Source of the DNA: Nocardioides sp. TRM66260-LWL
GTDB lineage: Bacteria; Actinomycetota; Actinomycetes; Propionibacteriales; Nocardioidaceae
Direction of reading: 5' to 3'
Length of the DNA stretch: 64,000 nucleotides
Assembly (NCBI RefSeq): GCF_020075545.1
Contig: NZ_JAIQZK010000005.1
Location: 124,001 to 188,000 of the forward strand
Below are positions 29,439 through 31,589 of the stretch, one piece after another. The notes below the pieces were generated by a model. It ran no database searches. It was not told the DNA's origin and saw nothing but the letters and a program-made list of their open reading frames with translations. Each line of letters starts with the position of its first letter. The stretch's first letter is position 1. The translations under genes and the position numbers were made by a program.

Positions 29439-31589
29439 TCAGGCGTCGAGCGCGAGCGCCACGGGCAGCACCCGGCCGGCGCCGGCGTCGAGGAGCGCGC
29501 GGGCGGCGAGGGTGAGGGTCCAGCCGGTGCCGACGCGGTCGTCGACCAGCAGCACCGAAGCGCCCGAGGGCACGTCGGCCTGCAGCGCGAAGCGCCGCGA
29601 CACCGCCGCCACCCGCTGCGCCGAGTTGGTGGCGCCCTGGCCGGGCCGCACCGAGGAGTCGACGATCGCGAAGCGACCCACCACGGGCACGCGCAGGTAG
29701 CGGGAGAGGCCGTCGGCGAGGTCGGCCACGAGCGCGGGTCGCGAGGCCGACTCGACGGCCACGATGGCGTCGACCGGCGGACGCCAGTCGTCCAGCACCG
29801 CCAGCAGCGCCCGGACGAGCGGCACGGGCACGGACTCCGGGCCGCGCGCGTCGGGATCGCCCGGTTCGCCCGGATCGCCGGGGTCGCCGGCGAACAGCGC
29901 GCGCAGCGCCGGGCCGTAGCCGAGGTCGGTGAGCCGGGCGATCGCGCGGCCCTCGTCGGCGCCGCTGCTGAGCCGGCCCTTCAGGCCGATGCCGAGGGCG
30001 GACAGGCCGGTGGGCCACATCTTGCGCGGCTCGATCGGCACCCCGGGGCGCGCCAGCCGCTCGCGGGCCTCGACCAGCGCGTCGTCGGAGACCGAGGTGG
30101 CGGGGGCGAACCCGCCGCAGACGTCGCAGCGGCCGCAGTCGACGGCCTCGGGGTCGTCGAGCTGCTCGCGCAGGAACCGCATGCGGCAGCGATCGGTGGC
30201 GAGGTAGGCGAGCATCGCGGCCTGCTCGCGCTCGCGGGCCTCGCGGACGCGGGCGTACCGCTCGGCGTCGTAGGTCCACGGCCGTCCGGTGGACTCCCAC
30301 CCGCCCTTCACCCGGCGCACCGCGCCGTCGACGTCGAGCACCTTGAGCATCTGCTCCAGGCGCGAGCGGGAGAGGTCGACGCGGGTCTCCAGCGCCGCGG
30401 TGCTGAGCGGGGCGCCCTCAGCGGCGAGCACGTCGAGGGTCTGCCGCACGACCTCCTCGCGCGGGAAGGCCAGGGAGGCGAAGTACGCCCAGATGTCGCG
30501 GTCCTCCGTGCTCGGCAGCAGCACGACGCTGGCCGTCTGCCCCGGCGGGAGCGCACGGCCCGCGCGGCCGACCTGCTGGTAGTACGACACCGGCGACGAC
30601 GGCGCCCCGAGGTTGACCACGAACCCGAGCGGCGCGTCGTAGCCCATCCCGAGCGCGGAGGTCGCGACCAGCGCCTTGACCCGGCCCGCGGCGAGGTCGG
30701 CCTCGAGCGCCTGCCGCTCGGTGGGCTCGGTCTGGCCCGAGTAGGCCGCCACCGCGTGGCCCCGCGAGCGGAGGTAGTCGGCGACCTCCGCGGTGGCGGC
30801 GACCGTCAGGCAGTAGACGATGCCCGAGCCCGGCTGCTCGGCGAGGTGGTCGGCCAGCCACGCCAGCCGCTGCTCGGCGGTCGTCAGCCGGACGACGGCC
30901 AGCCGCAGCGAGTCGCGGTCGAGGCTGCCGCGCAGCACCAGGACGTCGGTGCCGAGCTGCTCGGCGACGTCGGCGGTGACCCGTGCGTTGGCGGTGGCGG
31001 TGGTGGCCAGCACCGGGATGCCGTCGGGCAGGTCGCCCAGCAGCGTGCGGATGCGGCGGTAGTCGGGCCGGAAGTCGTGGCCCCAGTCGGAGATGCAGTG
31101 TGCCTCGTCGACGACGAGCAGGCCGCAGGTGGCCGCCAGCCGCGGGAGCACCTCGTCGCGGAAGCCGGGGTTGTTGAGCCGCTCGGGGCTGACCAGCAGG
31201 ACGTCGAGCTCGCCGGCGCGCACCGCCTGCTCGACGCCGCTCCACTCCTCGATGTTGGTGGAGTTGATCGTCGCCGCCCGGATGCCCGCCCGCTCGGCCG
31301 CGGCGATCTGGTTGCGCATCAGCGCCAGCAGCGGCGAGACGATGACCGTCGGGCCGGCGCCCCGCGTCCGCAGCAGGAGCGTGGCGACGAAGTAGACCGC
31401 CGACTTGCCCCAGCCGGTGCGCTGGACGACCAGCGCCCGCCGGTGCTGGGCCGCCAGCGCCTGGATCGCCGTCCACTGGTCGTCGCGGAGCACCGCGTCG
31501 TCGCGCCCGACGAGCGCGCGCAGGTGCGCCTCGGCCTCCGCACGGGTGGGGGCGGCGTCGGTGGCGGGTGAGGGGACGGCGGGGGGCAT
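29439..31589 (-). CDS. RecQ-family DNA helicase fused to a phosphoribosyltransferase-like domain
   Basis: 716 residues. SF2 helicase core: QRTGWGKS Walker A (56-63), DEAH (161-164), TATAN (198-202), QVGRAGR (339-345). The RecQ-Ct zinc site uses Cys468, Cys485, Cys488 and Cys491 (CGRCDVCG), followed by a winged-helix-like part. No HRDC domain follows. Instead residues ~585-716 resemble a type I phosphoribosyltransferase: VDAIVAVESASRPALVADLADGL, FAIVDSS and the PRPP loop VLLVDDRVGTGWTL (679-692), like ComF proteins. It presumably unwinds DNA in repair; the second domain may sense a nucleotide. The start is ATG 31589, 7 nt after TAGACA. Confidence 0.9.
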   Translation of the reverse strand: MPPAVPSPATDAAPTRAEAEAHLRALVGRDDAVLRDDQWTAIQALAAQHRRALVVQRTGWGKSAVYFVATLLLRTRGAGPTVIVSPLLALMRNQIAAAERAGIRAATINSTNIEEWSGVEQAVRAGELDVLLVSPERLNNPGFRDEVLPRLAATCGLLVVDEAHCISDWGHDFRPDYRRIRTLLGDLPDGIPVLATTATANARVTADVAEQLGTDVLVLRGSLDRDSLRLAVVRLTTAEQRLAWLADHLAEQPGSGIVYCLTVAATAEVADYLRSRGHAVAAYSGQTEPTERQALEADLAAGRVKALVATSALGMGYDAPLGFVVNLGAPSSPVSYYQQVGRAGRALPPGQTASVVLLPSTEDRDIWAYFASLAFPREEVVRQTLDVLAAEGAPLSTAALETRVDLSRSRLEQMLKVLDVDGAVRRVKGGWESTGRPWTYDAERYARVREAREREQAAMLAYLATDRCRMRFLREQLDDPEAVDCGRCDVCGGFAPATSVSDDALVEARERLARPGVPIEPRKMWPTGLSALGIGLKGRLSSGADEGRAIARLTDLGYGPALRALFAGDPGDPGEPGDPDARGPESVPVPLVRALLAVLDDWRPPVDAIVAVESASRPALVADLADGLSRYLRVPVVGRFAIVDSSVRPGQGATNSAQRVAAVSRRFALQADVPSGASVLLVDDRVGTGWTLTLAARALLDAGAGRVLPVALALDA

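What the first reader, a model, noticed from the sequence alone, without database searches (positions are those of the whole stretch)
29439..31589. RecQ-type helicase joined to a ComF-like phosphoribosyltransferase domain
The helicase core and four-Cys zinc site are intact, the HRDC domain is missing, and a PRPP loop VLLVDDRVGTGWTL ends the protein. Phosphoribosyltransferase folds in ComF proteins occur with DNA uptake and repair. The fused domain may make helicase activity depend on PRPP or a nucleotide alarmone.
Basis: partly seen in the sequence, partly recalled or inferred. Interest (0 to 1): 0.6.

Follow-up and report, generated by a model that had tools for sequence, protein, structure and literature searches.

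The report
Orphan RqlH helicase with phosphoribosyltransferase tail
The gene encodes RqlH, an already described bacterial DNA helicase with a phosphoribosyltransferase-like tail; here it is an actinobacterial copy without the partner protein that restrains it in E. coli, so the fusion is real but not new.

Summary
Window 29439-31589 (-) encodes 716 residues: RecQ-type motor, four-Cys zinc site, no HRDC match, C-terminal phosphoribosyltransferase (PRTase) domain. Residues 500-716 are modelled at mean pLDDT 93.3; realignment ranks ComF with PRPP (Z 12.3) and toxin ShosT with PRPP-Mg (Z 10.8) first. The fusion is known: it is RqlH (PsyrT in PADLOC, 679.5 bits over residues 16-713), described in Mycobacterium smegmatis and pathogenic E. 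coli. In E. coli, D663 is needed for self-toxicity and a DprA-like partner, RqlI, restrains it; D663 aligns with D684 here. No RqlI was found in this genome. In a class sample RqlH is in 70 of 118 genomes; the one strong RqlI match lies in a genome without an RqlH match. Solitary RqlH in Gram-positives is already published. PRPP gating of the helicase is disfavoured, because the tail is reported dispensable for ATPase and helicase activity in M. smegmatis (citing a paper not held). The tail's ligand and reaction remain unknown.

The parts
29439..31589 (-). RqlH/PsyrT-type protein, 716 aa: RecQ-like helicase fused to a C-terminal PRTase
   Evidence: ORF; PADLOC PsyrT 679.5 bits over residues 16-713; 80 kept relatives
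30510..31490 (-). Residues 34-360: RecQ-type motor core with Walker A K62 and DEAH box D161-E162
   Evidence: Pfam DEAD and Helicase_C; K62 and D161 align with K49 and D148 of E. coli RqlH
30105..30269 (-). Residues 441-495: four-Cys zinc site C468, C485, C488, C491
   Evidence: RecQ_Zn_bind match just below cut-off; Cys kept in 79 of 80 kept relatives, the 80th not read that far
29835..30104 (-). Residues 496-585: stretch between zinc site and PRTase core; from about residue 513 it aligns with ComF and so probably includes the hood of the PRTase; holds a Gly-Asp-Pro-rich insert at about 567-585
   Evidence: VIA range starts at model residue 14, that is residue 513; insert from alignment A2; pLDDT under 50 at 570-582 in the whole model
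29442..29834 (-). Residues 586-716: core of the ComF/ShosT-like PRTase domain
   Evidence: Pfam Pribosyltran 607-707; domain model mean pLDDT 93.3; 7p0h Z 12.3, 8zvc Z 10.8
29514..29555 (-). Residues 679-692: PRPP loop VLLVDDRVGTGWTL with D683, D684, G689, W690, T691
   Evidence: Translation; residue counts; D684 aligns with E. coli RqlH D663

Best explanation
The protein is an RqlH (PsyrT): an ATP-driven 3'-to-5' DNA translocase and helicase of the RecQ superfamily whose tail is a ComF/ShosT-like PRTase. The most likely way it works is that the motor moves on DNA without needing the tail, and the tail is a module that binds PRPP or a nucleotide and acts on a base, nucleotide or DNA end at opened DNA, with the helicase part also holding the tail in check. 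In Gram-negative systems a DprA-like protein (RqlI/PsyrA) adds a second restraint and the pair behaves like a toxin-antitoxin or defence module. In this actinobacterial branch the same protein stands alone, probably in a DNA-stress role with weaker or self-limited tail activity. Shown here: identity, architecture, fold, residue conservation, absence of RqlI. Taken from print: motor direction, dispensability of the tail for the motor, tail-dependent toxicity in E. coli, restraint of the tail by RqlI and by the helicase part, solitary state in Gram-positives. Inferred: ligand, reaction and role here.
For: Full-length PsyrT match, 679.5 bits, residues 16-713; 43.6% identity over 677 aligned residues to an E. 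coli ST131 chromosomal RqlH followed by an overlapping dprA-like gene. E. coli D663, whose change to Ala removes growth inhibition and SOS induction with only modest loss of viable counts, aligns with D684 here; K49 and D148 align with K62 and D161 (F11 numbering applied to the ST131 copy, which has the same 698 residues and the same letters at these places). T691 matches by motif position T165 of H. pylori ComFC, needed there for nucleotide binding. Top solved matches on realignment are ComF with PRPP and ShosT with PRPP-Mg. PRPP-loop residues are kept although the tail is the most divergent part: median identity to the window 42% in the PRTase against 74% in the motor core of the set, yet D683, D684, G689 and W690 in 79 of 79. 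Solitary: the genome has two DprA genes, 55% identical to each other, neither RqlI-like; 0 of 80 loci, with up to 6 kb flanks, have a DprA match; class sample 70 of 118 with RqlH and one strong RqlI match, in a genome without an RqlH match at that threshold. The window falls in an all-solitary set of 51 rows with SH-aLRT 98 (quick tree).
Against: No ligand, enzyme or DNA assay exists for this protein here. In E. coli the helicase-dead K49A and D148A proteins still cause filamentation and SOS induction, and the tail alone is not toxic: motor activity is not needed for the tail's effect, which weakens a simple delivery model. The Pfam PRTase score is only just above cut-off. W690 stands where ComFC has a Thr in DDIITTGTTL; G689 is Arg in 24 of 66 class and 11 of 33 phylum sequences, and D684 is lost in 2 of 66 and 8 of 33 (10 genomes are in both sets), so PRPP chemistry may not be the general function. 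Two Rhodococcus plasmid matches reach only residues 504 and 520 and were not read further. RqlH is missing at the threshold in 48 of 118 class genomes. Solitary rows also occur among paired ones elsewhere in the tree (5 changes).
Confidence: 0.5

Rival explanations
1. Ligand gating: PRPP, a nucleotide or (p)ppGpp bound in the tail switches helicase activity on or off.
For: PRTase fold with a PRPP loop; B. subtilis PurR bound to ppGpp is among the Foldseek matches, and ComFC binds PRPP and AMP, so the fold can bind such ligands.
Against: The domain is reported dispensable for ATPase and helicase activity in M. smegmatis. PRTases match PurR-ppGpp by fold alone. Loop residues vary between branches.
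Confidence: 0.12
2. The tail is a non-catalytic scaffold: a PRTase fold that binds DNA or a partner protein, as it does RqlI in E. coli, kept in actinobacteria for a different partner.
For: RqlI binding is lost without the PRTase domain in E. coli; W690 is kept in all 178 sequences with a letter there (10 genomes counted twice, the window's own copy included once) while D684 and G689 vary; ComFC T165A still binds ssDNA.
Against: D683 and D684 are kept in 79 of 79 close relatives, and D663A removes toxicity in E. coli. No gene near RqlH recurs widely: the widest cluster reaches 11 of 81 loci in 5 family labels, though a distant partner or a short gene is not excluded.
Confidence: 0.25
3. The gene is an orphan antiphage effector of the PsyrTA/ShosTA kind that lacks its antitoxin.
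For: Paired relatives sit inside a type I restriction operon on an E. coli plasmid and inside a BREX operon on an Acinetobacter plasmid; the tail resembles ShosT; a DprA plus PRTase system protects against T7 and lambda (passage of PMC9122126).
Against: The gene is in 8 of 8 genomes sampled from the window's own family, unlike a mobile defence gene; its Pfam-scanned neighbours are metabolic or unmatched (no defence scan of the neighbours was run). PsyrTA of strain NILS69 showed no protection when overexpressed in a native-host study.
Confidence: 0.15

Closest known systems
RqlH of Mycobacterium smegmatis (MSMEG_5935) and E. coli F11
   Same: Same order of domains over full length; E. coli ST131 copy 43.6% identical over 677 residues; solitary state as reported for M. 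smegmatis and Streptomyces
   Different: Differs from the E. coli pair by lacking RqlI; loop reads DDRVGTGWT where the ST131 copy has DDIVDSAWT
PsyrT of the PsyrTA toxin-antitoxin/defence module (PADLOC)
   Same: 679.5 bits over residues 16-713
   Different: No PsyrA beside it or elsewhere in the genome
ComF/ComFC
   Same: Top solved match of the tail on realignment, Z 12.3, 3.1 A over 160 residues, 17% identity
   Different: ComFC is a separate protein with its own N-terminal four-Cys finger; this genome has a separate 268-codon open frame with motif DDVLTTGAT and a Cys cluster, ComF-like by reading only
ShosT of ShosTA
   Same: Second solved match of the tail, with PRPP-Mg, Z 10.8; RqlI proteins also match the ShosA model
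   Different: ShosT has no RecQ motor (recalled; no ShosT paper appeared in the 15 listed)
RecQ
   Same: Motor core matches solved RecQ structures
   Different: Below the NCBIfam cut-offs of recQ and recQ_fam; no HRDC or RQC match

Membership tests
RqlH/PsyrT | RecQ-like motor with Walker A and DEAH box | tested here: met
RqlH/PsyrT | C-terminal PRTase domain in the same chain | tested here: met
RqlH/PsyrT | Full-length match to the family profile | tested here: met
   PDLC03928, 679.5 bits, residues 16-713
RqlH/PsyrT | 3'-to-5' translocation and unwinding | not testable with these tools
   Reported for M. smegmatis RqlH; title of the original paper seen in a reference list
PsyrTA/RqlHI two-gene module | DprA-like RqlI/PsyrA gene directly downstream | tested here: not met
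   No DprA match in the window; the genome's two DprA genes lie on another contig and are not RqlI-like; no PsyrA match at E 1e-30 in G000
ComF | PRTase fold with PRPP loop | tested here: met
ComF | Own N-terminal four-Cys zinc finger before the PRTase, as a stand-alone protein | tested here: not met
   No Cys at all in residues 496-716; the zinc site at 468-491 is the RecQ-type one
RecQ proper | HRDC and RQC domains and a score over the RecQ equivalog cut-off | tested here: not met
   No HRDC or RQC match; 254.7 bits against 640.2 for TIGR01389
Type I phosphoribosyltransferase enzyme | Catalyses phosphoribosyl transfer from PRPP | not testable with these tools
   Only the fold and the loop could be examined

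The most novel reading that the evidence does not exclude
In the actinobacterial branch RqlH is a self-restrained, single-gene effector: the PRTase is catalytically live on the same chain as the motor, is held in check by the helicase part alone, fires only on particular DNA structures, and uses a loop with a conserved Trp to act on DNA or nucleotides in a way no known PRTase does.
Probability: 0.12. Interest if true: 0.6.

Novelty: new member of a known kind. Interest (0 to 1): 0.22.

Why it matters
The fusion is established, but what its PRTase tail does is called unclear in the E. coli study, which also found it surprising that many bacteria carry RqlH without RqlI. The solitary branch around the window keeps the residue needed for toxicity in E. 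coli, so it is a clean place to test the tail without the restraining partner.

Tried and rejected
Replacement antitoxin next to RqlH: clustering of flanking frames in 80 relatives plus the window found no cluster wider than 11 of 81 loci in 5 family labels, one of them 'unknown'. A first pass was discarded because low-complexity shadow frames chained into two giant clusters. The method uses stop-to-stop frames of at least 110 codons and flanks of at most 6 kb, shorter in several loci, and could miss short genes.

RqlI elsewhere in the genome: two DprA genes exist. They are 55% identical to each other and 26-31% identical to the three RqlI proteins in their main match, while those three are 34-40% identical to one another. 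Both match ShosA better than PsyrA and DNA_processg_A at 204 bits. Rejected as RqlI.

Pairing versus loop state: D684 is kept in 8 of 8 paired rows and 53 of 60 solitary rows of the tree set; too few paired rows to conclude. Rows L103 and L109 come from fragmented genomes and were labelled solitary; a wider look found only DprA-level scores in their genomes.

Rows dropped or doubled: L008 of the set counts as a gap. The class set has 69 rows (70 genomes less the window's own), 3 of which lack the tail because the contig ends; 10 genomes are in both the class and the phylum set, and the phylum set also holds the window's own copy. The alignments for folding used 45 sequences (the window and 44 of the 80 relatives). 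The tree set took every second class row of 640 aa or more, 6 of 80 relatives, 22 phylum rows and 6 plasmid proteins.

Results that do not point to ComF: the tail's sequence profile finds PRPP synthetases first (5.6e-06 over 39 positions) and no ComF among the 60 shown; Foldseek ranks ComF sixth. Foldseek on the whole model listed only helicases among the 50 shown, hence the separate domain model. Families absent from the VIA list are not excluded.

Mobile records: 8 of 243 matching plasmid records have one place covering at least 80% of the query, and 0 of 33 phage records; one of the former, 11.85 Mb long, is hardly a plasmid.

Paper searches. The founding paper on M. smegmatis RqlH (PMC3378886) is not held; what is said of it comes from passages of PMC4670107 and from reference lists. 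PMC4670107, PMC5512222, PMC9122126, PMC9005727, PMC12409345, PMC8790059 and PMC4176160 were seen as passages only, PMC10117892 in a listing only.

Change after re-checking: confidence in the best explanation was lowered from 0.6 to 0.5 because the helicase-dead results had been left out.

Full report
Observation. The ORF at 29439-31589 on the minus strand starts with ATG and encodes 716 residues. Pfam places DEAD at 36-205, Helicase_C at 243-346, a RecQ zinc-binding match just under cut-off at 447-491 and Pribosyltran just over cut-off at 607-707; no HRDC or RQC match is reported up to E = 1. NCBIfam RecQ models match the motor but below their cut-offs, and TIGR00201 comF and PRPP synthetase models match the tail weakly.

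Reality of the fusion. All 80 have the motor and 79 the tail; L008 is read only to a stop at 451 residues. AlphaFold2 on 45 aligned sequences gives mean pLDDT 85.5 for the whole protein and 93.3 for residues 500-716 alone. With the latter, Foldseek lists PRTases of several kinds, an adenine PRTase first (5.3e-05) and ComF sixth (1.6e-04). Realignment of Foldseek's 1000 best chains puts H. pylori ComF crystallised with PRPP first (7p0h, Z 12.3, 3.1 A, 160 residues, 17% identity), then ShosT with PRPP-Mg (8zvc, Z 10.8, 3.7 A, 170 residues), then other PRTases from Z 9.6 down. The ComF and ShosT alignments start at about residues 513 and 509, so the stretch before the Pfam domain probably forms the hood of the PRTase. 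By sequence profile the best PDB matches are PRPP synthetases over 39 positions, with no ComF among the 60 shown. The PRTase assignment stands on fold and sequence; the ComF kinship rests on fold.

What it is. PADLOC's PsyrT model matches residues 16-713 with 679.5 bits, more than twice the next model. PsyrT and RqlH are one family: an E. coli plasmid protein annotated RecQ with a DprA-like gene behind it scores 1018.9 bits to PsyrT, and its neighbour 576.8 bits to PsyrA. PMC4670107 (passages) describes RqlH as a RecQ-like helicase with a C-terminal PRTase domain unique among known helicases; the M. smegmatis protein unwinds DNA 3' to 5' and its PRTase domain is dispensable for ATPase and helicase activity. 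In E. coli, deletion of the domain or D663A removes growth inhibition and SOS induction, the tail alone is not toxic, helicase-dead K49A and D148A still cause SOS induction and filamentation, and RqlI, which has a DprA-like region, binds RqlH only when the PRTase domain is present. [quoted passage not shown] PMC5512222 (passages) mentions the same fusion and its DprA partner.

Residue mapping. Against a 698-residue E. coli ST131 chromosomal RqlH (43.6% identity over 677 residues), K49, D148 and D663 correspond to K62, D161 and D684 of the window. T691 corresponds by motif position to T165 of H. pylori ComFC, whose change to Ala abolished nucleotide binding (passages). In the set D683, D684, G689 and W690 are kept in 79 of 79 sequences with a letter there. 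In 66 class sequences with the tail: D683 65, D684 64, G689 41 (Arg in 24), W690 66. In 33 phylum sequences: D683 32, D684 25, G689 18 (Arg in 11), W690 33 (10 genomes are in both sets and the phylum set holds the window's own copy). So the site is strictly kept near the window and relaxes further away, except for the Trp. The tail is otherwise the fastest-changing part: median identity to the window 42% in the PRTase against 74% in the motor core in the set.

Solitary state. The own genome has two genes with the DprA domain, 55% identical to each other and apart from RqlI; one lies between a magnesium chelatase-like frame and a recombinase-like frame (these two labels are readings from memory). 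None of 80 relatives has a DprA match within the held flanks, up to 6 kb. In a phylum sample of 149 genomes, 32 have an RqlH: 31 with one match of 582 bits or more (one of these, G108, matched only to model position 546) and one, G097, matched in two pieces; G108 and G097 both read through to the tail. Of these, 11 are among the 12 sampled genomes of the window's class. PsyrA matches of at least 170 bits occur in 4 of the 149 genomes at 5 places, all directly behind RqlH; the next score is 130.7. In a class sample RqlH is found in 70 of 118 genomes at E up to 1e-130, a few cut by contig ends, including 8 of 8 of the window's family; a PsyrA match over 170 bits occurs in one genome, which has no RqlH match at that threshold. 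A quick tree of 68 motor sequences puts the window in an all-solitary set of 51 rows (SH-aLRT 98), with all 8 paired rows outside; other solitary rows lie among the paired ones (5 changes). This agrees with the published count that 99.6% of Gram-positive bacteria in that data set carry RqlH alone, with Streptomyces and M. smegmatis named, so the solitary state is not a discovery.

Surroundings. On the 5' side of the gene lie a cyclic-nucleotide-binding protein, a 2-phosphosulfolactate phosphatase family protein and an M13 peptidase, on the 3' side a glycosyl hydrolase family 6 protein. They are not a conserved set: of six neighbour proteins, the M13 peptidase matches 9 and the phosphatase 5 of the 80 loci, the others at most 1, and no flanking cluster exceeds 11 of 81 loci. 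By contrast, paired genes on plasmids sit inside a type I restriction operon and inside a BREX operon between pglX and pglZ.

Mechanism. Motor activity without the tail is reported, so a PRPP switch on the motor is unlikely, though not excluded here. The tail's site is kept, so a ligand is likely; whether it is PRPP, a nucleotide or a DNA end, and whether chemistry follows, is inference. The E. coli study proposes that the tail alters a nucleotide in the genome and that RqlI resolves it with the helicase. Because helicase-dead proteins still act, the motor is not strictly needed for the tail's effect; the helicase part may instead restrain the tail, which would also explain how solitary copies are tolerated. 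That last step is inference and is the core of the novel case.

Verdict. A correctly seen, known fusion. The remaining interest is the unsolved role of the tail and the tolerance of a copy without RqlI.

Noticed in passing
L081:1267-2313 (G000:C1, match 789336-789983): A second DprA gene in the window's genome, 348 aa, 55% identical to the other one over 12-302; its role is unknown.
   Followed up: partly
L100:3998-7527: An RqlH-RqlI pair inside a BREX operon (pglX, RecQ, DprA, DUF262, pglZ) on an Acinetobacter plasmid. One listed paper, PMC10117892 on plasmid pCl107, holds the terms BREX, RecQ and DprA (listing only).
   Followed up: partly
L093:1691-11770: An RqlH-RqlI pair between the S and R genes of a type I restriction operon on an E. 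coli conjugative plasmid.
   Followed up: no
29835-29891: Window residues about 567-585 are a Gly-Asp-Pro-rich insert (GDPGDPGEPGDPD) longer than in the 11 other rows of alignment A2; pLDDT under 50 at 570-582.
   Followed up: no
L108, L121, L129, L130, L131, L182, L215, L216: Relatives whose loop has lost the second Asp (VDA, VDT, VDV, LDA) but keeps the following Trp.
   Followed up: partly
L132 and L211: Relatives with more strongly degenerate loops (CATSMRTGWT, VVDASSTQWP) that still keep the Trp.
   Followed up: no
L098:3926-6034: A Tsukamurella plasmid relative with a degenerate loop (VVDESGTGWAV).
   Followed up: no
NZ_CP124405.1 3043220-3046606: An E. coli chromosomal match whose annotated features are RecQ helicase, an IS3-like transposase, a ComF family protein and DprA: an RqlH apparently split by the element.
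   Followed up: no
L217:3941-7239: In E. coli ST131 the pair lies on the chromosome between gntU and yhgN, and the dprA-like gene overlaps the end of rqlH.
   Followed up: no
L094:3929-6010: An RqlH-like protein on a haloarchaeal plasmid with no DprA gene in the listed annotation beside it.
   Followed up: no
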